From positions 305,939,115 to 306,003,114 of the forward strand of contig NC_080672.1 of assembly GCF_030247195.1 (NCBI RefSeq): a stretch of 64,000 nucleotides of DNA, written 5' to 3'. Below the pieces are notes generated by a model. That model was not told the DNA's origin, made no database searches, and saw only the letters and a list, made by a program, of their open reading frames with translations. The position numbers and the translations under genes were made by a program. Shown here piece by piece: positions 3,082-61,529 of this stretch (position 1 is the first letter of the stretch; each line of letters starts with the position of its first letter). The stretch comes from Topomyia yanbarensis (taxonomy: Eukaryota > Arthropoda > Insecta > Diptera > Culicidae).

Positions 3082-4152
3082 CAAAACGTGAACTTAATTC
3101 ACTAGAGGCCAAACCATCGAATATATTCACAAGGTATCTTTGGACGAATTGGTCATAAGAATATTCCCCACAACTTGATAAAATTAAAATTAGGCATGGC
3201 TTACAACGATCAAATTAAAAAAAAAAAACTTTTTATGCTGACGAGGTAGAAAGTTGGTGTCTTCGACAAAGTTTTAGAAATGTTCGTAATAACAAATTTT
3301 GTTGAACTAGTTGAACTTGTAGGATTTAATGTTACCGATTTGTAAAGCGTTTTCAATGGCAACACCCTCAAATTTAGTTTTTTTAATATAACTTTTTCCA
3401 CTGTGACTTTTCGTGCAAACCGTGCTCCAGACAAATGTGGAGGCATTAAAACCACATAATATTGTTGAAGACTGTAAGTAAAAATACCCAAGTTAAAAAA
3501 CGTTACAAAATGAACTTAAAACCTTTTTACCTTTATTATGCGTAGTCCGGACATTGAAAATAGTGCCTGCTCGTCCATCTTGGTTTGCACCTTTCTCTCT
3601 TATACGCAGTTGAACTTAGGGTAAAAAATTTAAAATTCTTAAATAACTCCAAAACTAATGAGTATTTTTACAAGAGGTGTGCGCCGCGCCGCCGTTTTCA
3701 GGTGAAATTTTTATATGCAGTGTTCAACAATATTTTTACATGCAATCTTCAACAATAATTTAATTTTTACATGCGGTCTTCAACAATATTGTGTGGTTTT
3801 AATACCTCAACATTTGTCTGGAACATCGTTTGCACGAAAAGTCACAGCGATAAAAGCTATATTAAAAAGCTAAATTTAAGGGGTTTGCCTTAGAAAACGC
3901 TTTATAAATAGATAACATTAAGTCCTACAAGCTCAAGTTGTTCAACAAATTTCTTCATTATGAGCATTCCTAAAACTTTGTCGAGGACACCAACTTTTTA
4001 CCTCGTCAGTAGAAAAAGTTAATTTTTCTAGTTCAATCATAGTAAGTAATGCCTAAATTTAATTTTTATCAGATTGTGGGGAATATTCATACGAACAATT
4101 CCTCCAAAGATACCCTATGAATACATTCAATGGTTTGGCCTCTAGTGACGTT
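3082..4152. mobile_element. Fold-back element with ~380-bp inverted arms
   Basis: Left arm 3082-3478 and right arm 3772-4152 are inverted copies at roughly 75-80% identity by eye, separated by about 300 bp. Shared landmarks are CACTAGAGGCCAAACCAT at the outer ends, GGAATATTCCCC/GGGGAATATTC, and the inner ACAATATTGT-GTGGTTTTAAT. No coding capacity is visible; the arm open frame near 3210-3491 is unsupported. It is a long-TIR, non-autonomous DNA element. Confidence 0.75.
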
Positions 4153-16248: not shown

Positions 16249-16871
16249 AATGTACATTTATTATGATTACAATCGACCAAAGTAAAAAGTCTAATGTTCG
16301 ACCTTTTTTAAAAAAATGCACATTTCTAGTATATTTTTAATAATAAATCAAGGACAGAAGAAAATTCTGTTAGAATCTAATAAGATAAATAATCTTTTTG
16401 CATAAATTTTAATCCAATGGTCACAAAAGTCGGATGAAAAATGTAGATATGAAGGTGTGTAGGTATGAAGCACTGAGTGAAAATTGTAACTTTTTATTTT
16501 TCGCACAATCATACTTTCAGCTGAAATAATCTTCTATACTTGATAGTTATTGTTTGTGTTTGGTACTGTCTTCTCGAGCTTGCATCCATCCATCCTGCGG
16601 CATTTGAATGGTTTTGCATATTTCATTGTACAACTAAGTGCTCTTTTTAAAATGTGGAAATATCGTTGGAAAAGTTTTGTTTTGTCTGTGGTGAGTACAT
16701 ATTTTACGAATTAAAGGAATTTTAGCCTTCTGCTTCAACAGACTTCACAGCAGATTCTCAGTTCACAGAAAATTACGTGGCTAGTGCTACGATCCAGTGA
16801 GACCAGTGCTACACCCTCTAAACCGCCGCACCAGGGCAGGTCCGCTAAAATCATAAAATTTCTATACTATG

Positions 16872-16946
16872 TTGCGTTTCGGCTTCGCCTCATCAGAAAC
16901 CGACACTAACACATTGTCGGAATAGATTAGCGCCGGCTTGACGCAA
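16872..16946 (-). ncRNA. Type III hammerhead ribozyme (locus A, copy 1)
   Basis: On the minus strand: stem III TTGCG, then the cleavage triplet GTC, then stem I (AAGCCGGCGCTAAT paired, with G-U wobbles, to GTTAGTGTCGGTTT). The core CTGATGA follows, then stem II GGC-GAA-GCC, then GAAA, then stem III CGCAA. All conserved core bases are present, including the A15.1-U16.1 pair. Predicted self-cleavage is after the C of GTC. The only predicted difference from textbook forms is the minimal 3-bp stem II with a GAA loop. Confidence 0.9.
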
Positions 16947-17215
16947 ATCCCTTAAAACTAAAACACACTATGTGTTTCAATCAAACGACTGATCAAACGT
17001 GATGTCCCGTTCGAGCAGAAGTTCTGTTTATGCCGATGAGACACAAGTGAAGCCGAAACTTGTCTTGGCTTAGCAGGCCTATGCGAAAGCACTATGCTAT
17101 ATTTCACCCTAAGGAGGAAAAATTGGTAAAAACCAAAATTTCTCACTAGGGTGAAAATTTGTTGGTAAAAACCAGTCTTTGTACAGGAGGGCACAAATCC
17201 TTATTTCATACTATG

Positions 17216-17290
17216 TTGCGTTTCGGCTTCGCCTCATCAGAAACCGACACTAACACATTGTCGGAATAGATTAGCGCCGGCTTGACGCAA
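17216..17290 (-). ncRNA. Type III hammerhead ribozyme (locus A, copy 2)
   Basis: Same sequence as copy 1, exactly 344 bp away, with the core CTGATGA, GGCGAAGCC and GAAA intact and stem III TTGCG/CGCAA. Cleavage at copies 1 and 2 of a minus-strand transcript would release a 344-nt monomer. Confidence 0.9.
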
Positions 17291-17559
17291 ATCCCTTAAA
17301 ACTAAAACACACTATGTGTTTCAATCAAACGACTGATCAAACGTGATGTCCCGTTCGAGCAGAAGTTCTGTTTATGCCGATGAGACACAAGTGAAGCCGA
17401 AACTTGTCTTGGCTTAGCAGGCCTATGCGAAAGCACTATGCTATATTTCACCCTAAGGAGGAAAAATTGGTAAAAACCAAAATTTCTCACTAGGGTGAAA
17501 ATTTGTTGGTAAAAACCAGTCTTTGTACAGGAGTGCACAAATCCTTATTTCATACTATG

Positions 17560-17634
17560 TTGCGTTTCGGCTTCGCCTCATCAGAAACCGACACTAACAC
17601 ATTGTCGGAATAGATTAGCGCCGGCTTGACGCAA
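17560..17634 (-). ncRNA. Type III hammerhead ribozyme (locus A, copy 3)
   Basis: The third minus-strand copy, again 344 bp from the previous one, with intact core and stems. It is the last complete motif before the orientation switch at about 17718. Confidence 0.9.
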
Positions 17635-17851
17635 ATCCCTTAAAACTAAAACACACTATGTGCTTCAATCAAACGACTGATCAAACGTGATGTCCCGTTA
17701 GAGCAGAAGTTCTGTTTAGGCCTGCTAAGCCAAGACAAGTTTCGGCTTCACTCGTGTCTCATCGGCATAAACAGAACTTCTGCTCGAACGGGACATCACG
17801 TTTGATCAGTCGTTTGATTGAAACACATAGTGTGTTTTAGTTTTAAGGGAT

Positions 17852-17926
17852 TTGCGTCAAGCCGGCGCTAATCTATTCCGACAATGTGTTAGTGTCGGTT
17901 TCTGATGAGGCGAAGCCGAAACGCAA
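17852..17926 (+). ncRNA. Type III hammerhead ribozyme (locus A, copy 4, inverted arm)
   Basis: Plus-strand copy: TTGCG, GTC, stem I, CTGATGA, GGCGAAGCC, GAAA, CGCAA. It would be made only by transcription in the opposite direction from copies 1-3, because the array is head-to-head. Confidence 0.9.
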
Positions 17927-18195
17927 CATAGTATGAAATAAGGATTTGTGCCCTCCTGTACAAAGACTGGTTTTTACCAACAAATTTTCACCCTAGTGAG
18001 AAATTTTGGTTTTTACCAATTTTTCCTCCTTAGGGTGAAATATAGCATAGTGCTTTCGCATAGGCCTGCTAAGCCAAGACAAGTTTCGGCTTCACTTGTG
18101 TCTCATCGGCATAAACAGAACTTCTGCTCGAACGGGACATCACGTTTGATCAGTCGTTTGATTGAAACACATAGTGTGTTTTAGTTTTAAGGGAT

Positions 18196-18270
18196 TTGCG
18201 TCAAACCGGCGCTAATCTATTCCGACAATGTGTTAGTGTCGGTTTCTGATGAGGCGAAGCCGAAACGCAA
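18196..18270 (+). ncRNA. Type III hammerhead ribozyme (locus A, copy 5, inverted arm)
   Basis: 344 bp from copy 4. It carries one stem I change (AAACCGG instead of AAGCCGG), which turns a G-U wobble into an A-U pair and so keeps the helix. Core and stems II and III are unchanged. Confidence 0.9.
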
Positions 18271-18879
18271 CATAGTATGAAATAAGGATTTGTGCCCTCC
18301 TGTACAAAGACTGGTTTTTACCAACAAATTTTCACCCTAGTGAGAAATTTTGGTTTTTACCAATTTTTCCTCCTTAGGGTGAAATATAGCATAATAAAAT
18401 TTCTATTTCGCTCAATGTGCCATAGCATCAACATTTTTCATCCGATGTTAGTGATATTAGGCTTAAAATTAACGTAATCATATTATTTGTTATCTTAGAT
18501 TCTAAAAGGTCCAAAAAAAATTGTTTTTCGGTAAAAAAATATTTAAACATGAGTAACTTTTAAAAATGGTCAAAAATGCACTTTTTTTAAACTTTGGTCG
18601 CTTGCAGCACTAAAAAATTTACATATGATCGACACATATTATATGTTTTTAGAAAGGGCATCTCGGCACCTTTCAGCCGGTATAACTAAATTAATTGAAT
18701 GATTTTGACACGAAATATTGACTAAAACCTACAAAAAGTGCTCAAAAACGAGTTTTTTGAGAAAATCACAAAATCGATTCTTTGAACAAAAAAATAAATA
18801 TTGTTTTCATGTTCAGCGACCCAAAATTAGTCTAAAAAATACTTTTTCTTGAAACTTCATTTTTCTTGTAAACTAGTGT

Positions 18880-33005: not shown

Positions 33006-33224
33006 ATGAGAACTGCGAGAAACGAGAGACTTAGATTTAGTCGGTAGGCCTAACTACTACAAACCACTGCAGGAAGCATCCGACTTTACGACGAGCCAAC
33101 AGGTTGTTGAAGGTTCCTTCTCCTTAACTGACATTGCCCCAATTGGTTGAGCTGAATCGATTGGTATACAAGACTTCCCCTCCACTCCTCGGAAAAATCT
33201 TCAAAATTTGAGTTTTCTATACCT

Positions 33225-33724
33225 NNNNNNNNNNNNNNNNNNNNNNNNNNNNNNNNNNNNNNNNNNNNNNNNNNNNNNNNNNNNNNNNNNNNNNNNNNNN
33301 NNNNNNNNNNNNNNNNNNNNNNNNNNNNNNNNNNNNNNNNNNNNNNNNNNNNNNNNNNNNNNNNNNNNNNNNNNNNNNNNNNNNNNNNNNNNNNNNNNNN
33401 NNNNNNNNNNNNNNNNNNNNNNNNNNNNNNNNNNNNNNNNNNNNNNNNNNNNNNNNNNNNNNNNNNNNNNNNNNNNNNNNNNNNNNNNNNNNNNNNNNNN
33501 NNNNNNNNNNNNNNNNNNNNNNNNNNNNNNNNNNNNNNNNNNNNNNNNNNNNNNNNNNNNNNNNNNNNNNNNNNNNNNNNNNNNNNNNNNNNNNNNNNNN
33601 NNNNNNNNNNNNNNNNNNNNNNNNNNNNNNNNNNNNNNNNNNNNNNNNNNNNNNNNNNNNNNNNNNNNNNNNNNNNNNNNNNNNNNNNNNNNNNNNNNNN
33701 NNNNNNNNNNNNNNNNNNNNNNNN
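33225..33724. other. Assembly gap of 500 N
   Basis: Exactly 500 undetermined bases, which suggests a gap of conventional, unknown size. Open frames spanning it are artefacts. The gap lies 3' of the astacin gene, where its missing last exon could be. Confidence 0.98.
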
Positions 33725-34479: not shown

Positions 34480-35475
34480 AAAGGCAGATTTTAGGCCGCT
34501 GAGAATAGAAAAGTTGTCATGGCAATTTTTGTTGACTTGAAATAAGCATTTGAATCAATTGATCGCCGTAAACTGATTTGCGTTTTGGAGAAATATGGTG
34601 TAAGAGGAAATGCTCTTGCGTGGTGTCGCAATTACTTAGAAAGACGTACGCAATCTACAAGGTACAACCGCGCTACATCATCGGTAGGCGAAATTAACCT
34701 TGGTGTACCACAAGGTGGTGTACTAGGATCACTTTTGTTTATCCTATACATTTACGATATGAGAAACATTTTGGAAAATGCGGAAATAAACGGAAATAAA
34801 TGCGGAAATAAAGTTTTGTTTATCATCGGTAATAGTTTCGATGAGTGCATCAGGCTAATGAACCTTGAGCTGACGAAGTTTAGTGATTGGTTGAAGTGGG
34901 AAAAACTCAAACTGAACATTACCAAAACCAAATATATTATTGTAACTACGCGGCAGATGAATGAAAGTACTGAAACAGTTGAAATAGAGGGAGAGATAGT
35001 TGAACGAGTTGCAACTATCAAATATCTTTCGGGCACATAGGACGAAAAAATAAGTTTTAATGAGCACGTGAACAATACCATCCGGAAAGCTGTGCTTCTA
35101 TTCTTTTCTTAGCATCCAAGAAACAGCAAGCAAACTCCACGACATTTGATGCTCAATTGTTTACAATGGATGTCAGTTCAGCAACGTATTGAATATAATA
35201 CACTTGCTTTCATCTTCAGAGTAATATATGGAATGACGCCGCAGTACCTGTGTAGCACTGTTGTGTACGGAAGAGATGTGCACCGGTATGAAACCAGACA
35301 AACCGGCAAACTGAGATTATTGAGCGCAAAGAAATCTTGCACGCAGAACTCCTTATTTTATAAAGGCTACAATTTGTTCAATACATTACCAGAATACGCC
35401 AAGCGGATTAATAACCTAAGAGAGTTTAAACAGGCCTGCAAGATATTTGTGAAGCAGAAACCTTTGGATTTATAA
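34480..35475 (+). pseudogene. Truncated non-LTR reverse transcriptase
   Basis: The plus frame begins within RT motif A ('MAIFVDLK', stop at 34543, 'AFESIDRRKL'). It continues through motif B ('LGVPQGGVLGSLLFILYIYD'), thumb ('FSDWLKWEKLKLNITKTKY') and, after a stop at 35038, 'DEKISFNEHVNNTIRKA'. After a small deletion near 35110-35145 comes the C-terminal domain 'HRYETRQTGKLRL … YNLFNTLPEYAKRI'. The catalytic YADD region is missing: its place (34776-34815) holds repeats of cggaaataaa. The C-terminus lacks RNase H, which fits CR1/Jockey-like clades. The insertion lies 3' of astacin exon 2, apparently in its intron. Confidence 0.85.
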
Positions 35476-35672
35476 GAGAGAAAGATGGGCATACACGGAA
35501 GTGAAATAAGATTGAAGGAATCTCTCATGAGTGAAAAAATATTATCGAAAGATATCTGAATGTAAACCTTCCACACTACAAAAGATGTGTATGGGTGTGA
35601 GGTGGGCCATCCCAGGTTCAAAATGACGCACATGTACATGAAGATGTTTCATAATAAACAATCAAAAAGTAC

Positions 35673-36493
35673 CTTCGGTTCGATAGTTGGGGCACCATTC
35701 CAGCTGAACGCCGTCGGAGAATAATGCATCACACTGCCCAAATCGTACGATATTCCATGCGTTGTAGTGCGCTCTTGTCTATCCTTTCTGAAGTTCCCCA
35801 ACGAATCAGGTTTTATATTTTGTACTTTTACTTTCACGTATTGGTCCCTATCGTGGCGGGTATGTTCATGAAAGAACCCTAAAACATGCATCAGTTCATG
35901 CATAATGGTTCCCGTTCGACGAATGCAGACATTTCGCTGTAAGTTGAGAACTTGCTTTCCACCCGCACGGCCCACCGTTGACCAGCATCCATCAACGGAA
36001 CTCTCGATGGATATGTAATCCGGTTGATTTTCCCGGGGAACAAATCGAACGCAAGTTCTCTGACGAAAGATTTGAAAGGCGCTTCGGATTTTTTGCGCTT
36101 CGCTCGAACCTGCAGAAGATGGCTGTTTTAATGACTATCGAAGAATGTTCTCAATAGTGAAAACCTACTGAACTCATCACTTATTTCATAAGGAACAATG
36201 CCTTTCTTCCATTTTTTACTTTTGAATTTAATGGCATTTTTCGCCACCAATGGCTGGTATATATCACCTTCTACGTAGTTTCCAGCTTCCTCTGGATTAG
36301 AATCTTCAGCCTCCGAATCAACTGACTGGTCCAGTCGTTTCTGAGTGTGGTTTCCATTTCTTGGTTCGTACAATCCTTCGCCAAGCATTGACAAATCGAA
36401 CTCAAATTCTTCATCCTCGTATTGGACGGCCAGACAAAAGGGTATCGACAATACCAAAATTTGTATTAATTTTCGCTGCACTAACGGGGACAT
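35673..36493 (-). CDS. Astacin-family zinc metalloprotease (M12A), 3' end missing
   Basis: Two exons, 36169-36493 and 35673-36109, joined by a 59-bp intron with donor GTAGGT and acceptor TTCTGCAG; spliced they encode 254 residues. Start ATG at 36491-36493. Residues ~9-23 form a signal peptide core (ILVLSIPFCLAVQ). An acidic propeptide follows, with VEGDIYQP around residue 75, matching the FxGD aspartate switch that holds pro-astacins inactive. The catalytic domain has C128, C150 and C170, the zinc motif HELMHVLGFFHEH (H179, E180, H183, H189) and the Met-turn SVMHY (M236, Y238). It is probably secreted. Reading stops at a donor-like GTACTT right after EPK (35672). The last ~50 residues with the partner cysteine must lie in another exon, not found downstream; the N gap or beyond is possible. 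Several GATAA-type sites lie upstream (36600-36790), as often near gut-expressed genes (inference). Confidence 0.9.
36110..36168 (-). other. 59-bp intron of the astacin gene
   Basis: Donor GTAGGTTTTC, acceptor TCTTCTGCAG. It contains in-frame stops, and splicing here uniquely restores the astacin frame (…SDEF-S-SSEAQKIRSAF…). The size is typical for short dipteran introns. Confidence 0.85.
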
Positions 36494-41904: not shown

Positions 41905-43020
41905 ACTAAAATAGAAGTCACCATCTTAGATGAAAACATGACTTCCGGAATTGACATCCGGTATCTATTCATTAACGCTATTACAAAAATTCTCACATTG
42001 TTGTGGTAATTGAAAATTTTACTAAACCGAAGTAGCCATCTTGATTTTCGAAATGGTCTCAGACATTGATATTTGGCACCTACTCGTCAATCCCGTTCCA
42101 AAAATACTCATATTGATTGGGCTTTGGAGAATTCCACAGAACCGGAAGTCGCCATCTTGAATTTCAATATGGCACCAGACATCGATATCTAGCGTCTATT
42201 CGTCAATTCTATTCCAAAAATACCCATATTGATTCGATTTTAGAGAATTCCAATGAACCTGAAGTCACCATCTTGGTTTTCCAAATGGCCTCTGACACTG
42301 ATCTCTATCATGAGCTCTATTAGACCCGCTCTGAAAATGTGCATGCTGATTGGGTTATAGAGAATTCCACTGAACCGGAAGTCGCCATCTTGGTTTTCAA
42401 AATGGCCTTAAACATCGATATCTGACGTCCACTCATCAATCCCGTTCCAAAAATAGCCATATTGATGGGGTTTCAGAGAATTCCACTGAACCGGAAGTCG
42501 CCATCTTGGTTTTCAAAATGGCCTTAAACATCGATATACGACGTCCATTCATCAATCCCGTTCCAAAAATACCCATATTGATGGGGTTTCAGGGAATTCC
42601 ACTGAACCGGAAGTCGCCATCTTGGTTTTCAAAATGGCCTTAAACATCGATATCTGACGGCCACTCATCAATCCCGTTCCAAAAATACCCATATTAATGG
42701 GGTTTCAGAGACTTCCACTGGACCGGAAGTCGCCATGTTGGTTTCCAAAATGGCCTTAAACATCGATATCTGACGTCCACTCATCAATCCTGTTCCAAAA
42801 ATAGCCATATTGATGGGGTTTCAGAGAATTCCACTGAACCGGAAGTCGCCATCTTGGTTTTCAAAATGGCCTTAAACATCGATATACGACGTCCACTCAT
42901 CAATCCCGTTCCAAAAATAGCCATATTGATGGGGTTTCAGAGAATTCCACTGAACCGGAAGTCGCCATCTTGGTTTTCTAAATGGCCTCAGACATGAACA
43001 TTTGGCATCTACTCGTTAAT
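41905..43020. repeat. 116-bp minisatellite, about 10 units
   Basis: The motif ACCGGAAGTCGCCATCTTGG recurs at 42141, 42257 (variant), 42374, 42490, 42606, 42722, 42838 and 42954, a period of 116-117 bp, with two more divergent units to the left (near 41913 and 42027). Middle units are nearly identical, left ones decayed. Other unit landmarks are TTCCAAAAATA-CCATATTGAT and AACATCGATAT. 116 bp matches no coding period. Confidence 0.92.
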
Positions 43021-45277: not shown

Positions 45278-45526
45278 ATCAAGTATTGGGACGCCGGGCG
45301 GTTTTCCTCGAGCCGGCAGGGGTTCCTCCAGACGATTTCTTAGTACGGCTCAGATACGGATCGGAAGCACACCGCGCTGCGAGTGTGATGTTGTACTGTA
45401 GATCTCGTGTTGTTGGTTCATTCGACAGATGTTTTGTCTCGTCTTGGAGTCGTATCAAACCATCGTTGGGGTACGGTAGGCGGAAGAGGGCACTTCTGGG
45501 AATGATAAGAGAAAAGATAAGGGCAT

Positions 45527-48500
45527 TTAAATTTGGATATTGATGGTTTTGAGGAACGTGTATATAAGGGACATATAGAGAATATCGCGGCTTGCTAGTA
45601 CATCTCGAACCGGGACATTGGGTGATCTTCCTCGGGCCCGAAGGGAATCGAATAGTTGAGATCTGGCAGAACAGTACTCGGCGCATGCCCAGACAACATG
45701 TTCGATTTCGTGATAACCGTTGCCACAAGCGCAGATACCGCTATCCACGAGCCCAATACGCCGGAGATGTGCATCCAGCGTGTAGTGATTGGACATGAGC
45801 CGAGACATCACGCGAATGAAATCCCGACCCACATCCATCCCTCTGAACCAAGGTTTCGTCGATACCTTAGGGATTATCGAATGTAGCCACCTTCCCAGTT
45901 CACCATTGCTCCATGAAGTTTGCCAACTTTCGAGGGTTCTCTGATGAGTGATACTGAAAAATTCGCTGAAGCTAATTGGTCTTTCATATATGTCACCTTG
46001 TAAAGCGCCCGCCTTAGCTAAAGAGTCCGCTTCTTCATTACCTGGAATGGAGCAATGCGAGGGAACCCAAACTAAGGTAATCTTGTACGATCCTACAGAC
46101 AAAGCACGCAGGCGCTCCCAGATTTTCCCCAGAAAATATGGAATGAACTTTCTAGGTTTCATTGAACGGAGAGCCTCGATTGAGCTGAGGCTATCCGAGA
46201 CAATAAAGTAATGATCGGTGGGCAAAGTATCAATGATCCCAAGGGTATACTGAATAGCAGCAAGTTCTGCGACGTAAACTGAAGCAGGATCATTGAGTTT
46301 GAATGAGGCGGTGAGGTTTTGATTGAATATACCGAAGCCAGTGCAGTGGAGCCGTCGAGGCTTGACCCGTCGGTGTAAAACATATTGTTGCAGTCGACTT
46401 CTCGAAATTTACTATGAAAGATGCTTGGGATCACTTGCGGACGTATGTGATCCGGGATTCCACGAATCTCGTCTTTCATGGATGTGTCGAAGAATACAGT
46501 TGAATCAGAAGCATGAAAGAGATTGACACGGTTGGGATAGTATGAAGAAGGATTGATATTTTGTGCCATGTAATCGAAGTACAAGGACATAAATCGGGTT
46601 TGAGAATTGAGCTCGACAAGCCTTTCGAAATTTGCAATTACTAACGGGTTCAAGATATCGCATCGGATGAGCAATCGATATGAGAGTTCCCATAATCGAT
46701 TTTTCAGCGGAAGGACGCCCGCCGGCACTTCTAAACTCATCGTATGTGTCGAGTGCATGCAACCCAAAGCAATACGCAAACAACAATATTGGATTCGCTC
46801 TAGTTTGATGAAATGTATGTTCGCAGCGGAGCGGAAACAGAAACTCCCGTACTCCATCACCGACAATATTGTTGTTTGGTACAGCCTGATCAGGTCTCCT
46901 GGGTGGGCACCCCACCATGTTCCGGTTATTGTACGGAGAAAGTTGATCCTTTGCTGGCACTTCTGTTTCAGATACCTAATGTGACATCCCCAGGTTCCTT
47001 TAGAGTCGAACCAGACCCCGAGATATTTGAAAGTTGAAACCTGAGCAATAGTTTGACCCATTAATTGAAGCTGTAGTTGCGCTGGTTCACGCTTCCTTGA
47101 AAATACGACTAGCTCAGTTTTCTCCGTGGAGAACTCGATACCTAGCTGGAGGGCCCAAGCAGACAAATTGTCCAAGGTATCTTGCAATGGTCCTTGCAGA
47201 TCGACGGCTTTGAGACCTGTAATAGAGACCACACCGTCATGTGCAAGCTGCCTTAGCGTGCAGGAATTGACAAGACATTCGTCAATGTCATTCACGTAAA
47301 AGTTATAGAGAAGGGGGCTTAGACATGAGCCCTGGGGAAGACCCATGTAGCTAATTCGTGATGTCGATAAATCACCATGCGAAAAATGCATATGTTTTTC
47401 AGACAGCAAGTTTAGCAAAAAGTTGTTTAGAGTCGGTGAAAGACCATGCTGGTGCAGCTTCTCAGAAAGAATTTTGATAGAAACTGAGTCAAAAGCCCCC
47501 TTTATATCTAGGAAAACTGATGCCATCTGCTCTTTGCTAGCATAAGCCATTTGAATTTCTGTTGAGAGCAACGCAAGACAATCGTTCGTCCCTTTGCCTT
47601 TGCGGAAACCAAATTGTGTATCTGACATTAAGCCATTTGCTTCAACCCAATTATCGAGGCGAAACAAGATCATTTTCTCGAACAACTTTCGGATACAGGA
47701 CAGCATTGCAATCGGTCGATACGAGTTGTGGTCGGAGGCTGGTTTTCCTGGTTTTTGAATGGCGATGACCTTCACTTGCCTCCAGTCATGAGGGACAATA
47801 TTACCCTCAAGAAACTTATTAAATAAATTCAACAAGCGTCTCTTGGCAGAGTCTGGCAGATTCTTTAACAAGTTAAATTTGATTCTGTCTGGCCCTGGGG
47901 CTTTATTGTGACATGATAAGAGAGCAAGTGAGAACTCCACCATCGAAAACGGTGTTTCGTTCGCGTTATTGTGAGGGGACGCGGCGCGGTAGATCTTCTG
48001 TGCCGGGGCGGAATCCGGACAAACCTTCTTGGCAAAATCGAATATCCAACGGTTTGAATATTCCACGCTCTCATTGGTACTGTTTCGGTTTCGTAAGCGC
48101 CGGGCCGTACTCCAAAGAGTGCTCATCGATGTTTCTCTCGTTAGTCCGTCGACGAACCGGCGCCAGTAGCTACGTTTTTTGGCTTTTATCAAACTCTTCA
48201 TGCGCGTTTCCGCCATCGCGTACTGTCGGTAGCTAGCTGGCAGCCCGTCGTCCCGGAAGGTCTTATACGCAGCGGCCTTCTTCGCGTACACGTCTGAGCA
48301 CTCTTTGTCCCACCATGGATTGGGAGAACGCCCGCGTGAATTCGCGTCTGGTACGCGTTTAGTCTGAGCTTGAATCGCGGTATCGAGAATCAAGCCAGCC
48401 AGGAACCCGTACTCTTCCTCCGGAGGAAGCTCTTGTGTCGATTCTACTTTTTCGGATATCGCGGACGCGTAGCTCTTCCAATCAATATTTCGTGTGAGGT

Positions 48501-49218
48501 CATACGAAACATTGATTGTATTCGGTGGCCCTGAACCGTTAGCAATATTAATTACGATTGGCAGATGGTCGCTGCCGTGGGGATCAGAGACTACCTTCCA
48601 CATGCAATCTAACCGCAGCGATGTCGAGCAGAGGGACAGGTCTAAGGCGCTCGGACGCGCTGGAGGGGCAGGAATCCGTGTCATTTCACCCGTATTCAAA
48701 ATGGTCATATTGAAGTTGTCGCAAAGCTCATGGAGTAGGGTAGATCGATTATCGTCATGAAGGCAACCCCATGCCGTGCCGTGGGAGTTGAAGTCACCTA
48801 AAACTAGCCTCGGTGCGGGGAGGAGTTCCGCAATATCGCAAAGCCGTCGGTGGCTAACTGAGGCTCTAGGGGGGATGTAGGTGGAAGCAATGCAAAGGTC
48901 TTTGCCTTTAATTCTGGTTTGGCAAGCGACAACTTCAATGCCTGGTGTCGAGGGGAGGTCGATCCGATTGAAAGGATAGCACTTTTTGATCCCCAAAAGT
49001 ACTCCTCCGTAAGAGTCTTCTCGATCCAAGCGAATAATATTAAAATCGTGAAAGTGTAGGGTTATTTCTGAAGTGAGCCATGTCTCGCATAGGGCAAATA
49101 CATCGCATTTCAAATTATTTAGTAAAATTTTAAACGAATCGATTTTCGGGATAATACTTCTGCAATTCCACTGTAGAACAGTGATTAAATCCTTGACCTC
49201 GTTCGATGAATTAGCCAT
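45527..49218 (-). pseudogene. I-clade retrotransposon ORF2 (endonuclease, RT, RNase H), frameshifted
   Basis: Starts at ATG 49216-49218, overlapping the ORF1 stop by 8 nt; an upstream TTG is not used as start. The N-terminal AP endonuclease has LQWNCRS, FALCETWL, LVLGDFNSHG and DPHGSDHLPI, all intact. The RT has motif A FLDIKGAFDSV and motif B GLPQGSCLSPLLYNFYVND. In motif C, LRQLAHDGVVS, the first of the two aspartates is histidine (codon 47239-47241, CAT for GAT). RNase H begins FYTDGSS. The frame breaks near 46345, where ACTGCACTGGC looks like a small ACTG-type duplication. RNase H resumes in another frame with AELAAI, IVSDSLSS and NEEADSLAKAGA, then a CxCGxGYxEIEHVVWxC zinc-like tail ending at 45527. 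Confidence 0.93.
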
Positions 49219-50533
49219 CGAAGGATACAATCGCTGAAAGGAGGGGCCATTTCGCAGTGAACTGCATCAAGAATGTTTTTACTGCGAGGAGAAAGCTTAT
49301 CAAGATACTTTTAAGGGGGTCAGAAATGTTCAACGTTGTAAGAATACGGTCCACAATGTCAGAGAAATTTATTAAGCCAGCACTGTTTTCTTTCTCTGGC
49401 TGAGATATGGGAACACTTGGGGTTTTTGATGTTCCTGGAAGTGCTGGGAACTCCTTTTCTGAGCTCAGGTTACTGAGACCGGGAGCGACTTGCTTCGGTT
49501 TTACAACAGTACTTCCTTGAGTAGTCATTTTAGGGGGACCATGAAGAGACACCTTCTGGCCTTTACGACGAAGCTTGGAAGAGGAAATGTTCTTCCTTTT
49601 TCTACTACTTCTAGGCACAGCAGAAGATGTTCCCTCCTGGGGTTCATCACAGTCGCCTTCGTCAGTAGACAAGCTGGCAAAGATGTTCGTAGAGACAGGT
49701 GGCGTAGCTATCTTAAGCATTTCTGCAAAAGATCGCTTAGAGCGTCCCTGAAGGGAACGCTTAAGATTTTCCTCGCGCTGTTTGTACGCGGGACATGAAG
49801 GGAGATCATGTGGGTTTCCCCCACAGTAGAGACACTTTTCGACATCTCTACCACAGGAATCATCCGCATGATTCCCACCGCATTTCCCACAGCGGGCTTT
49901 ATTGCTACAATGGGAGGCTGTGTGTCCCAATTGTTTGCAATTAGTACAGTTCATGACCCGCGGCACAAAGAGGCGAACAGGTAGACGAACCTTGTCAAAG
50001 AGGAGGTAATTGGGCAGGGCAGAGCCGGCGAAGGTCACCCGATAAGAGTCTGAGTTGACGTATGTTTTCTTCCCGTCAGCTGCGACTGATGCTGAATGCA
50101 AACGTTTGCATTCCAGTATCTTCACTGGCTTAAGCATGGGGTCTTTGAAACAGCCAGTCCCATATTTTAGCAGGTCCTCGCAATTCAGACTCGAATCGGA
50201 AACGACCCCACTGACTTCAACCCTGCTAGCTGGAATATACACCCTGTACTCCCTCGTAAAGGGCTCGTAGCCAGCAATATCATTTGCCTGAGTTGAACTG
50301 TTAACAACCACCCGAAGCTTATCAGGGCGAATTTTCGATATTTCTGTCACGGCCGAATACCGGTCTGTCAGAACGCGAGAAATCTGCAACAGATTCAAAC
50401 ACTTTTTTTCTTTGGTCCGAAAGAAGATCACAAATGGCCCGGTGGCCGTGCTCGGATATACTTTCAGCCGGGGAGCCGATTTTGTTTCGACGTCCATCTC
50501 ACCTTGAGACGAACCGCCGTCAGGGGAAGTCAT
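49211..50533 (-). CDS. I-clade retrotransposon ORF1 (Gag-like nucleic-acid-binding protein)
   Basis: 440 residues from ATG at 50531-50533 (context gcaaaaATGa). The N-terminal half contains an RNA-recognition-like fold region followed by three zinc knuckles near residues 195-255: CTNCKQLGHTASHC (Cx2Cx4Hx4C), CGKCGGNHADDSC (Cx2Cx3Hx4C) and CLYCGGNPHDLPSC (Cx2Cx4Hx4C). The C-terminal part is low-complexity, Ser/Lys-rich, with a hydrophobic end. I-type ORF1 proteins bind the element RNA and form the ribonucleoprotein for target-primed reverse transcription. The frame is intact throughout. Its stop TAA overlaps the ORF2 start in ATGGCTAA. Confidence 0.92.
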   Translation of the reverse strand: MTSPDGGSSQGEMDVETKSAPRLKVYPSTATGPFVIFFRTKEKKCLNLLQISRVLTDRYSAVTEISKIRPDKLRVVVNSSTQANDIAGYEPFTREYRVYIPASRVEVSGVVSDSSLNCEDLLKYGTGCFKDPMLKPVKILECKRLHSASVAADGKKTYVNSDSYRVTFAGSALPNYLLFDKVRLPVRLFVPRVMNCTNCKQLGHTASHCSNKARCGKCGGNHADDSCGRDVEKCLYCGGNPHDLPSCPAYKQREENLKRSLQGRSKRSFAEMLKIATPPVSTNIFASLSTDEGDCDEPQEGTSSAVPRSSRKRKNISSSKLRRKGQKVSLHGPPKMTTQGSTVVKPKQVAPGLSNLSSEKEFPALPGTSKTPSVPISQPEKENSAGLINFSDIVDRILTTLNISDPLKSILISFLLAVKTFLMQFTAKWPLLSAIVSFDG

Positions 50534-50842
50534 TTTTGCACGGGCCTATTGCCCAGTGCACGTTATTAAGACAACCAAGAAGGGGAAACAAAAACTAATA
50601 CTTAGCTTGTGTAGGTAACGGTATCCAGACGGCTTACTAGAGGAACACTGCTTCACTTCACTGACCGGCTAACGGTACAGAAACAGAAACACAAAAGAAG
50701 GGAAAAAACCTCAACTAGGCGTAGAGTGTGCAAATAACCTTGAACGCGGATTAACACTATTTGTCGCTATAGAGTGTACGGACTGATGACAAAAGACTTC
50801 TATCTCGACTGAGTGCTCGATAACGAATGATAAATAGTCGAT

Positions 50843-58992: not shown

Positions 58993-59696
58993 TATGATAT
59001 CCAACAAGGTAATCTAATTTTTCTATATCTGTAAAGTAACACTAATAAAAGAAGATGGCTGCCAACGAGATTTGATGACGTGTGTAAATTGAAATAAATG
59101 TTTTTTTTAAATTATTTTCCATTGATAATAACGAAAAGGTTTATTGATAAAGCTGGACTGTGGTTTTCTTCAGGTTGTATACATGCTGAATAATTGTTCT
59201 TTAATGTGTCTTAATCAGAGACAAGCTAAATAAATTCTCCAAATCCAGATACTTAAGGGTGGAATAAACGATATATGATTACACGTATGTTTCCAATGTT
59301 CAGCTAGAGCTGAATGAAGCAACTGGTAAAACGTTTATAAAACCACGAATTGTTTGTTGGGTAGTCACTACTAGTCAGTTGTTGACACTTACCTAACATA
59401 CAATTCGATTGGTGTAACCCTAACCAAATAGTCGAAATTCAAAATTACTTGTATGTTTTATTTTATCTATTTATTCCCGATTCACTCAGTGGGTATGACA
59501 GAATTAAGCAGTTTCGGAAAATCTGTTTAGAACTTCTTGTCAGAAAAATTATAACACTTATAATATTAATAATTATAAATAATAATAGGAAAAAGACGAA
59601 TTTTTAATTTTATCATTGATTAGTAATATGTTTATTATGCTATATTTGACCCTAAGGAGAGGATTAAAACACAAAGTGTGTTTTAGTTTTAGGGAT

Positions 59697-59771
59697 TTGC
59701 GTCAAGCCGGCGCCAATCTATTCCAACAAAAAGTTAGTGTCGGTTTCTGATGAGACGAAGTCGAAACGCAC
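59697..59771 (+). ncRNA. Type III hammerhead ribozyme (locus B, copy 6)
   Basis: TGCG, GTC, stem I (one C-A mismatch), CTGATGA, stem II GAC-GAA-GTC, GAAA, CGCA. Relative to locus A (GGC-GAA-GCC), both sides of stem II changed so that pairing is preserved. Stem III is 4 bp plus A15.1-U16.1. All core bases are intact. Confidence 0.88.
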
Positions 59772-59861
59772 CCATGTAATAAGTAAAGATTTGTGCCCTT
59801 CAAGTGCAAATACTGGTTTCACCAAAAAAAATTGCGCCCGAGTGAGAAATTTTGGTGTATA

Positions 59862-61218
59862 GGGTAACAGGGATATTTTGGACCGCTTTATGAAGCCTTG
59901 AGAAAAAATTCTGAAAAAATACAGTTTGGCTACATAATCTGGATCATTTAACGGGTTAAGATGTACGGCTCCATCTATTTTCGCAATCTAGTGTTCTAAA
60001 TTGTCAAATAAACATATATGCTCAGGAAATGTTACAAATTTTGAAGGTGAATTTTTCTAATTTTGGGCCACACAATTTTATTTTGGACCGTAAACAAACC
60101 ATATATTGGACCATCGTTTTTCCTTTGAGCCAATGTTGAAAACATATTTTGGACAGATCTTACTCAGAGTTGCTAATTTTCAATAGGTTGGTTTGAACTT
60201 GAAGGAGGAACAAATCTCAAAGCATACCCTACTATGTTCAAGTCGCAGTTGTTGGTTGCATTATTCGTTCAAACAGCCGAACTGCTCAATCATTTTCCAT
60301 TTCATTGACCCTGAGAATATCTCTCTACTGGGATACTAAACAGGTCTTTCAAGCAAAACTATTCTGAACATACTTCTTACATGTATGCTTGAAAACGCAA
60401 AATATGTCAACATTTAACCTAAACTGACCTCTACAGAGCAGATTACAGCTTTGGTTGGTGAATGAAAAAGCATCTCTTTGAAATGAAGACGTACGGTTTT
60501 ATCATGGAAATCCCGCCAACTTGAAAGTGTAGGCTGTAGCGAGGCTGTTAATTTGGATCACGGTTGGTGTGGATTGAGCTGAAAGTTGGCATTTGAAAAT
60601 AAAAATTCGCATCACTGGATCTTACAACACATTTTGGACACTAAATGTTCACATATTCAACATATTTTTATGATAAATTCGTACATGATTGACTAAAAAG
60701 TGCTTTTCTGGAAATTAATAGTGAACTTTTTAAAATACAGAGTAGGTATGCGAAGAGATGCCAGAGCTATTTGGGAGCATGGCGAAAATATGTTTTCCTT
60801 TAGAAATAATTAATATATTTTGGACATATCAAAAATAACAATTTCAACACATCTGATCCTTTATATCAATTTGAAAAAATTCTCTCATATCTTTTATCCG
60901 CTTAATAATCATATTTGCATGTTTAAAATGAAGGCACTTTAGAAGTAATAACACTTCAATGTTAGTTATAACCTTACCACTTCCTAGTGTTTTTGGACCT
61001 GTAAAACTGAAATGTGAAGACACGTTTAAAAATTTTCAATTTACTGCTTCCTAACATACCATTTAACTCAGAATAGAACGGAAGATGCTTTCTAGTGTTA
61101 TAATTTCAGTGTTACATTAGTAATATTTCAATTTGTTGTGAACTTTAAATGGTAAAATGCATGAATTATCGCCAAGTGGTCCAAAATATGGTAGTGGTCC
61201 AAAATACCCTCGTTACCC
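59862..61218. mobile_element. 1.36-kb TA-inserting TIR transposon, non-autonomous, nested in retrozyme locus B
   Basis: Ends GGGTAACAGGGATATTTTGG and, inverted, GGGTAACGAGGGTATTTTGG, continuing to ACC, flanked by TA (59860-59861, 61219-61220). Comparison with the uninterrupted locus A monomer confirms a TA target duplication, as in Tc1/mariner-like elements. The motif TATTTTGGAC is repeated through the interior on both strands (e.g. near 60080, 60140, 60630, 60820, 61185). No coding frame of note; it is a deletion derivative or MITE. Confidence 0.9.
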
Positions 61219-61398
61219 TACCCATTTTTTCTCCTTAGGGTGAAATATAGCATAGTGCTTTCGCATAGGCCTGCTAAGCCAAGACAAGTTTCGGCTTCAC
61301 TGTGTATTATCGGCATAATCAGAACTTCTGCTCGGACAGGACATCACGTTGGATCAGTCATCCGATTGAAACACAAAGTGTGTTTTAGTTTTATGGAT

Positions 61399-61473
61399 TT
61401 GCGTCAAGCCGGTGCTAATCTATTCCGACAAAAAGTTAATGTCGGTTTCTGATGAGACGAATTCGAAACGCAC
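61399..61473 (+). ncRNA. Hammerhead ribozyme (locus B, copy 7), weakened stem II
   Basis: Core CTGATGA and GAAA and cleavage triplet GTC are intact and stem I is mostly paired. Stem II reads GAC-GAA-TTC, leaving only two pairs, so activity may be reduced. Stem III is TGCG/CGCA. Confidence 0.8.
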
Positions 61474-61529
61474 CCATGTAATAATATGTTTATTTATTTA
61501 TAAGATAGTCGCAATTATTTTCTTTCGTG

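What the first reader, a model, noticed from the sequence alone, without database searches (positions are those of the whole stretch)
16866..18393. Tandem 344-bp monomers carrying complete type III hammerhead ribozymes: a retrozyme-like element
Five hammerheads occur, three on the minus strand and two on the plus strand, spaced exactly 344 bp within each arm. Each has stem III TTGCG/CGCAA, GTC cleavage site, 14-bp stem I, CTGATGA, 3-bp stem II and GAAA, i.e. every core base. Perfect 13-bp direct repeats ATAAAATTTCTAT flank the insertion, so it moved as a unit. This fits non-autonomous retroelements that self-cleave, circularise and are copied back. Small retrozymes are established in plants and animals; a mosquito family with this monomer, type III topology and minimal stem II may be undescribed.
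Basis: partly seen in the sequence, partly recalled or inferred. Interest (0 to 1): 0.93.

Follow-up and report, generated by a model that had tools for sequence, protein, structure and literature searches.

The report
Mosquito type III hammerhead retrozyme family
A mosquito genome carries thousands of copies of a small non-coding repeat with a hammerhead self-cutting RNA motif, and the way the copies sit in the DNA suggests that a Penelope-like retroelement copied them in from small RNA circles, starting from two fixed points on each circle.

Summary
16866-18393 holds five hammerhead motifs (3 minus, 2 plus) in 344-nt units between perfect 13-bp target duplications; an older, interrupted copy lies at 59637-61481. 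The host is a mosquito near Malaya/Wyeomyia. Rfam's type III model scores the motif far below cut-off (18.7 vs 48.5 bits): an atypical type III hammerhead, cleavage inferred, not shown.

The genome holds 5860 near-exact cores. Resolved insertions have two arms head to head, one ending at unit position 73-80 (site A), the other at 188-194 (site B), with 10-13-bp duplications: 22 of 34 loci in one sample, 9 of 19 in another. The rest are short-armed, one-armed, cut off or irregular; no A/A or B/B insertion with a duplication was seen. Some variants are fixed in every unit of both arms, as one shared RNA circle predicts.

A Penelope-like element (PLE) of this genome inserts the same way (17 of 18 loci). 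Best reading: a non-autonomous type III retrozyme mobilised by PLE machinery that primes both target ends on one circle. Animal retrozymes in the papers I saw are type I. Against: no sequence tie between the start sites of the two.

The parts
16853..16865 (.). left target-site duplication ATAAAATTTCTAT of insertion E1
   Evidence: exact match to 18394-18406, only two places in the window
16866..17722 (-). E1 left arm, 857 nt (2.49 units of 344), sense 3' end outward at site A (unit position 73-74)
17717..18393 (+). E1 right arm, 677 nt (1.97 units), sense 3' end outward at site B (unit position 191)
17717..17722 (.). inner head-to-head junction; 6 nt shared by both arms, part of palindrome AGGCCT
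16872..16946 (-). type III hammerhead motif 1 of E1
17216..17290 (-). type III hammerhead motif 2 of E1
17560..17634 (-). type III hammerhead motif 3 of E1
17852..17926 (+). type III hammerhead motif 4 of E1
18196..18270 (+). type III hammerhead motif 5 of E1 (stem I G-U changed to A-U)
18394..18406 (.). right target-site duplication of E1
59624..59636 (.). left target-site duplication TAATATGTTTATT of the older insertion E2
59637..59660 (-). E2 left arm, 24 nt, sense 3' end outward at site B (about unit position 190)
59661..59859 (+). E2 right arm, first part (unit from about 302 through 344 to about 156)
59697..59771 (+). hammerhead motif E2a: stem II GAC/GTC (middle pair changed on both sides from GGC/GCC), one C-A mismatch in stem I, outermost stem III pair lost
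59860..61220 (.). DNA transposon-like insert with 28-bp imperfect terminal inverted repeats that splits E2
   Evidence: inverted repeat I2
61221..61481 (+). E2 right arm, second part, sense 3' end outward at site A
61399..61473 (+). hammerhead motif E2b: stem II GAC/TTC (2 pairs), one mismatch in stem I, outermost stem III pair lost; probably decayed
61482..61494 (.). right target-site duplication of E2

Best explanation
A non-autonomous retrozyme. The 344-nt unit is transcribed, cut by its type III hammerhead and closed into a circle (inferred). The RNA circle is bound by the protein of a Penelope-like element (PLE) of the host (inferred). The endonuclease cuts both target strands about 11 nt apart (inferred from the duplications). 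Both freed 3' ends prime reverse transcription on the same circle, one at site A just 3' of the ribozyme, the other at site B about 115 nt further on. Each cDNA runs round the circle a fraction of a turn to several turns, and the two cDNAs are joined in the middle. The result is the head-to-head, tandem, A/B-ended insertion with a 10-13-bp duplication. Shown here: motif, genomic spread, the end and orientation pattern, duplications, variant sharing between arms, and the same anatomy in a PLE of the same genome. Not shown: catalysis, circles, and which protein acts.
For: E1 anatomy. Genome: 2904+2956 cores at <=2 mismatches, reversed-pattern control 0+0. A/B ends with a duplication found by script: 22 of 34 loci in the top-scored sample, and all 22 that had two arms and such a duplication are A/B; in the listing-order sample 9 of 19 independent loci (8 by script, L091 by eye). 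Further A/B: L031, L042, L054 by eye, L052 without duplication, E2 by eye. In the 22: site A ends 73-80, site B 189-194; duplications 12x11, 7x12, 2x13, 1x10 bp, 81% A+T. Head to head: 20 of 20 strand switches among the first 100 listed cores. 37 of 44 arms exceed one unit; one array has 8.1 units. One template for both arms: 10 variants fixed in all units across both arms, permuted mean 0.2, maximum 3 in 1000 runs. PLE in the genome: L068 frame with RVT_1 and GIY-YIG. PLE insertions: 17 of 18 independent loci head to head with one end at P1 and one at P2, exact duplications in 15 of 17 (12x11, 2x12, 1x10) (loci chosen as opposite-strand pairs). A purified lizard PLE protein cuts and extends both strands and starts at two adjacent internal RNA sites (PMC11167929).
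Against: Sites A and B show no significant sequence likeness to the PLE start sites, so nothing ties this PLE to this RNA by sequence. Five variants are at intermediate frequency, and mean divergence within arms (0.0148) is not below that between insertions (0.0130); medians 0.0094 and 0.0102. In the listing-order sample 7 of 19 loci show one arm only and 3 are irregular (L077, L084, L085; L085 has both ends nearest A, without a duplication); in the top-scored sample L043, L046 and L056 show only an A end and L062 is irregular. An excess of inner arm ends at the predicted cleavage site (8 of 54) was absent in the listing-order sample (0 of 30, my count), so it is at least partly search bias. 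The hammerhead is sub-threshold for Rfam and not the predicted minimum-energy fold. No LINE family was tested as a negative control for the end pattern.
Confidence: 0.72

Rival explanations
1. Same PLE machinery, but the template is a linear multimeric transcript of a genomic array, not a circle; the hammerhead may be dispensable.
For: In the lizard PLE, ribozyme mutants still inserted in vitro (PMC11167929). A donor array that came from one circle would itself be uniform. Five intermediate variants exist.
Against: Arms up to 2.8 kb (8.1 units) and variants fixed in all units of both arms need a long uniform donor; single-unit variants of a donor should reappear as intermediates, which are few (5 against 10 fixed).
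Confidence: 0.18
2. A LINE mobilises the RNA by ordinary twin priming; the PLE likeness is coincidence.
For: A LINE-like reverse transcriptase frame (RVT_1) lies in the window at 34546-35040, and twin priming of LINEs gives inverted arms (recalled).
Against: Both ends are fixed internal sites with no tail; all 20 strand switches seen in the listing are head to head; PLE copies of this genome share the anatomy and the 11-bp mode. LINE insertions of this genome were not examined.
Confidence: 0.06
3. A satellite or fold-back DNA element spread at DNA level; the hammerhead is a relic.
For: Tandem and palindromic layout; some arrays are long; L033 and L091/L092 show DNA-level duplication.
Against: Inner junctions differ in all 22 resolved insertions; the ends are not terminal inverted repeats (sequences); 10-13-bp duplications at dispersed sites; snap-back copying of one arm would give A/A ends, not A/B.
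Confidence: 0.02
4. Endogenised viroid-like or HDV-like circular RNA agent, not a resident retroelement.
For: Type III hammerheads with long helix I occur in HDV-like circular RNAs of a toad and a termite and in dipteran genomes (PMC7936874).
Against: No long reading frame (at most 80 codons inside the units of E1, no protein match); the motif was found on one strand of the unit only; thousands of copies, of at least two ages in the window, with element-like ends.
Confidence: 0.02

Closest known systems
Metazoan non-LTR retrozymes (Cervera and de la Pena 2020, PMC7229834)
   Same: Non-coding tandem units of 150-450 bp, G+C under 50% (here 41.9%), duplications longer than 4 bp, PLEs in the same genome.
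   Different: Those carry type I hammerheads; this one is type III with a 14-pair stem I and 3-pair stem II. The section and passages I saw describe no head-to-head, two-site insertion anatomy ('inverted' and 'head-to-head' occur 0 times in that text); PLE mobilisation is proposed there, not shown.
Plant LTR retrozymes
   Same: Type III hammerhead; spread through circular RNA.
   Different: Units of about 700 bp, G+C over 55%, 4-bp duplications, LTR features.
Penelope-like elements (PLE)
   Same: Inverted terminal copies with a tail optionally on one of them, short duplications, A+T-rich targets, hammerheads in the terminal repeats; same two-site anatomy in this genome.
   Different: PLEs encode RT and GIY-YIG endonuclease; the 344-nt unit encodes neither, and its two start sites lie about 115 nt apart instead of about 38.
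Type III hammerheads of HDV-like RNAs and dipteran genomes (PMC7936874)
   Same: Type III topology, long helix I, in dipteran DNA.
   Different: Those have a 5-pair stem, an internal loop and a pseudoknot to a YGGC loop II on a 6-pair stem II; here stem II has 3 pairs with loop GAA. The section read describes no element around the dipteran motifs.
Hammerheads in interspersed repeats of Aedes aegypti (Perreault et al. 2011, PMC3088659)
   Same: Mosquito, interspersed repeats with hammerheads.
   Different: A figure legend describes the A. aegypti example by a loop III that pairs in a dimer, which is the behaviour of type I motifs with a weak stem III; sequence not seen, so not compared.

Membership tests
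Metazoan non-LTR retrozyme | hammerhead in tandem units of 150-450 bp | tested here: met
   344-nt units
Metazoan non-LTR retrozyme | type I hammerhead | tested here: not met
   stem III is the open one: type III
Metazoan non-LTR retrozyme | G+C below 50% | tested here: met
   41.9%
Metazoan non-LTR retrozyme | dispersed, duplications over 4 bp | tested here: met
   10-13 bp in 22 of 34 loci and 11-13 bp in 9 of 19
Metazoan non-LTR retrozyme | no LTR, PBS or PPT | not tested
   PBS and PPT not searched; the arm layouts do not look like LTRs
Metazoan non-LTR retrozyme | circular RNA expressed | not testable with these tools
   no RNA data
Rfam Hammerhead_3 (RF00008) | score at or above the gathering cut-off 48.5 | tested here: not met
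   18.7 bits
Hammerhead ribozyme, type III (by consensus core) | CUGANGA, GAAA, UH at the cleavage site, three stems, stem III open | tested here: met
   5 of 5 E1 motifs and E2a (E2b has a 2-pair stem II); full motif in 105 of 132 units of L031-L063 and 23 of 29 units of L074-L093
Hammerhead ribozyme | self-cleavage | not testable with these tools
   bench test needed
Plant LTR retrozyme | 4-bp duplications | tested here: not met
   10-13-bp duplications
PLE-mobilised (anatomy) | head-to-head arms, two fixed outer ends, one per arm, short A+T-rich duplications | tested here: met
   PLE of the same genome; exceptions listed in the report
PLE-mobilised (sequence) | RT start sites share sequence with a PLE of the genome | tested here: not met
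   no significant likeness to one PLE family; other PLE families not searched
Penelope-like element | encodes RT and GIY-YIG | tested here: not met
   longest frame inside the units 80 codons, no protein match

The most novel reading that the evidence does not exclude
An insect class of retrozymes with type III hammerheads exists, and its genomic copies record that PLE protein uses one small RNA circle as a shared template: a protein dimer holds the circle at two different sites, and the two cut target ends each start reverse transcription at one of them. The same two-site rule governs PLEs themselves, so the PLE tail and retrozyme sites A and B would be the same device.
Probability: 0.5. Interest if true: 0.88.

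Novelty: new variant of a known kind. Interest (0 to 1): 0.78.

Why it matters
How animal retrozymes move, and whether circular RNA is the direct template, is left open in the papers I saw: PLEs were named as strong candidates because they co-occur and share hammerheads (PMC7229834). Here one genome offers 5860 core copies whose ends and private variants can be read as a record of the reaction, with a PLE in the same genome to compare. It gives exact, testable predictions: two start sites on one 344-nt circle, one per cut target strand. It also extends the retrozyme kind from type I to type III hammerheads in animals.

Tried and rejected
Rfam at gathering on the window: nothing. Permissive search of the insertion: weak type III hits with the wrong GTC, five miRNA-family hits that I take to be the inverted repeat folding on itself, tRNA hits at 16.6 bits, and others (17 rows). 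Plain folding does not prefer the hammerhead. Covariation is thin: one pair with both sides changed (stem II), 4 distinct rows, and 78 of 500 shuffles reach the observed covariation score.

Footprint of in-vivo cleavage: inner arm ends at unit positions 1-5 looked enriched (8 of 54; 44 ends from the 22 insertions plus 10 typed in; L033, L045, L062, L063 and E2 left out). I then saw that the query began 13 nt before the cleavage site, so its best hits favour such ends (20 of 54 lie within 1-36; inside that stretch 7 of 20 at 1-3, P 0.0008). In the listing-order sample 0 of 30 (my count, duplicate L092 left out). I do not count it as evidence.

Shared start-site motif between PLE and retrozyme: looked good by eye (CATAGT), failed a rank test (best case 34 of 344 positions score as well). 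Relatives in viral contigs and genome contigs by exact pattern: 0. Spurious-frame relatives in the protein database: 0. Rfam RF00008 in the whole genome: 0, but that search rang in no control genome, so it says nothing. A covariance model of the motif was built but never searched with.
Full report
Observation. The window region 16866-18393 is an insertion of 344-nt units in two opposed arms: 857 nt on the minus strand and 677 nt on the plus strand, with sense 3' ends pointing outward (head to head), sharing TAGGCC at the inner junction. It lies between perfect 13-bp direct repeats, 16853-16865 and 18394-18406. Each of the five motifs holds TTGCG-UC, a 14-pair stem I with a 15-nt loop, CUGAUGA, GGC-GAA-GCC, GAAA and CGCAA. 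That is every core base of a hammerhead with stem III open, i.e. type III (core and types recalled, and as given in the papers). A simple search for this layout finds 6 of the 7 motifs of the window and none in 60 Markov resamples.

Limits of the motif. Rfam gives no hit at its cut-offs. The permissive search scores each motif 18.7 bits against 48.5 and aligns a shorter stretch using another GTC, presumably because the model expects a short stem I. The hammerhead fold (-23.3 kcal/mol) lies 2.5 kcal/mol above the computed minimum; tertiary contacts are not in that calculation. A stem II of 3 pairs is not unusual: Perreault et al. 2011 report stems II of two pairs and one of a single pair (PMC3088659, section 6 read, passages). 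Self-cleavage is therefore inferred from the core, not shown.

A second insertion in the same window. At 59637-61481 lies an older copy, flanked by its own perfect 13-bp repeat TAATATGTTTATT and split by a DNA transposon-like insert with 28-bp inverted ends, 59860-61220. Its left arm is only 24 nt. Its two motifs have the whole core. Stem II reads GAC/GTC in one (middle pair changed on both sides from GGC/GCC) and GAC/TTC in the other; each has one mismatch in stem I and has lost the outermost pair of stem III. With 4 distinct rows the covariation test is weak.

Host. The astacin ORF 35649-36134(-) is 86% identical to a Malaya genurostris protein and 80% to one of Wyeomyia smithii. The genome held is 1.168 Gb in 1044 contigs. 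A mosquito near these genera is likely; the species is unknown.

Genome-wide spread. The pattern GGTTTCTGATGAGGCGAAGCCGAAACGCA with up to 2 mismatches occurs 2904 + 2956 times; the reversed pattern 0 + 0. Among the first 100 listed places (68 clusters, all on contig C1, all exact matches), 20 of 20 strand switches between neighbours within 3 kb are minus then plus, i.e. head to head, and the 12 same-strand neighbours lie 342-344 bases apart.

End rule, top-scored sample: E1 plus 33 fetched stretches that cover the clusters shown in the (cut) listing, itself 40 scored of 249 candidates. Of 34 loci, 22 have two arms and an exact 10-13-bp duplication found by script (12x11, 7x12, 2x13, 1x10; 81% A+T). 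In 22 of 22 one outer end is at unit position 73-80 (site A) and the other at 189-194 (site B); 11 have A on the left, 11 on the right. Of the other 12 loci: L052 is A/B without a duplication; L032, L045 and L063 show one end only (B, B, A), the other lying beyond the stretch or in a gap; L031, L042 and L054 have an A arm plus a B arm of about 8-12 nt and an 11-14-bp duplication, read by eye; L043, L046 and L056 show only an A end; L062 is irregular; L033 is a palindromic duplication.

End rule, listing-order sample: the first 20 clusters, which needed an exact core but were not ranked by length or score of the unit; L092 repeats L091, leaving 19. Nine are A/B with a duplication of 11-13 bp (8 by script, of which L076 and L083 with one mismatch and L081 with its B end at about 188; L091 by eye), 4 show A only, 3 B only, 3 are irregular (L077 68/141, L084 A/160, L085 97 and about 70, none with a duplication). 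In neither sample was a two-armed insertion with a duplication A/A or B/B. If each arm chose its site freely, 31 of 31 would have a chance of 2^-31.

One template for both arms. In the 22 insertions I classified base variants at least 8 nt from arm ends: 10 variant-insertion cases are carried by every unit in both arms, 5 are intermediate, 72 are in a single unit. Dealing carriers at random among units gives a mean of 0.2 and at most 3 fixed cases in 1000 runs. Six of the fixed variants occur in only one of the 22 insertions. This is what one circular template per insertion predicts. Raw divergence is a blunter measure and does not show it in the mean: within arm 0.0148, between arms of one insertion 0.0083, between insertions 0.0130 (medians 0.0094, 0.0058, 0.0102); per locus, within is lower than to others in 23 of 30, higher in 6, equal in 1 (my tally). 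Arms longer than a unit (37 of 44) need a circle or a multimer. Snap-back copying of one arm does not fit the A/B rule, since it would return to the same site.

PLE comparison. The genome encodes Penelope-like elements: 5 GIY-YIG matches, one frame with RVT_1 and GIY-YIG (L068:478-1872). The PLE terminal repeat holds a sequence that I read as a minimal type I hammerhead (by eye, motif recalled). A search with its end gave 63 matches, 40 of 866 candidates scored. I fetched 20 of the 22 neighbouring opposite-strand pairs in that list, so having two opposed arms was part of the choice; the ends were not. Of 18 independent loci (L095 repeats L094, L111 repeats L110), 17 have one outer end at P1 (111-114 of the reference) and the other at P2 (about 145-157), none P1/P1 or P2/P2; 15 of 17 have an exact duplication by script (12x11, 2x12, 1x10; none found at L099 and L104). 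L094 is the exception (P1 and 74, no duplication). So this PLE and the retrozyme follow one rule: two start sites, one per arm, 11-bp mode. I did not run the same census on a LINE.

Mechanism. Purified lizard PLE protein cuts and extends both strands, prefers A+T-rich targets and starts at two adjacent sites inside the RNA, matching the tail of genomic copies (PMC11167929, parts 1 and 2 of 4 read). Bdelloid PLEs have inverted terminal repeats with a tail optionally on one of them, duplications of 8-10 bp where present, and palindromes at the inverted junction (PMC3846280, passages and discussion). The same device acting on a 344-nt circle would give what is seen. What I could not show: a sequence tie between A/B and P1/P2, and the acting protein. 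The lizard work found the ribozyme dispensable in vitro, so the hammerhead's part may lie only in making the circle.

Known and new. In the papers I saw, animal retrozymes are described as type I, plant ones as type III (PMC7229834, section 13 and passages; PMC7761336, section 8 and passages). Type III hammerheads are reported in dipteran genomes with a different architecture and with further work announced (PMC7936874, sections 10 and 12 and passages). Hammerheads in Aedes aegypti repeats are in print. I found no paper on an insect type III retrozyme or on this insertion anatomy in the listings of nine searches of the held open-access library; subscription papers, including the 2010 survey of de la Pena and Garcia-Robles (not held), are outside it. 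I file it as a new variant of the retrozyme kind.

Noticed in passing
window 59860-61220: DNA transposon-like element of about 1.36 kb with 28-bp terminal inverted repeats (86% complementary) and several internal TATTTTGGAC-like copies, inserted into the older retrozyme copy.
   Followed up: partly
window 45279-50545 (-): Frames of 1035, 444 and 293 aa that by eye look like a long non-LTR retrotransposon (zinc knuckles, RT, RNase H); the 444-aa frame has no Pfam match, the others were not scanned.
   Followed up: no
L069 about 102-190; L072 about 2800-2960 and 3139-3479; L071 about 1917-1954: Divergent hammerhead-like relatives (65-79% to the unit in parts) near PLE copies: more retrozyme families of other ages may exist.
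   Followed up: partly
L043 556-3355: Single-orientation array of 8.1 units ending at site A with no visible B arm or duplication.
   Followed up: no
L031-L063 inner arm ends: Cluster of inner arm 5' ends at unit positions 1-3, right after the predicted cleavage site; absent in the second sample, so unresolved.
   Followed up: partly
L096-L113: Short PLE insertions in which two inverted terminal-repeat arms are all that lies between the duplications.
   Followed up: partly
L033; L091 and L092: Retrozyme copies inside palindromic or inverted duplications.
   Followed up: no
window 42021-42995: 116-bp tandem array, 8.4 copies, with no notable match to the retrozyme unit.
   Followed up: no
window about 33224-33723: A run of N, 500 in the window in all (gap or withheld stretch).
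   Followed up: no
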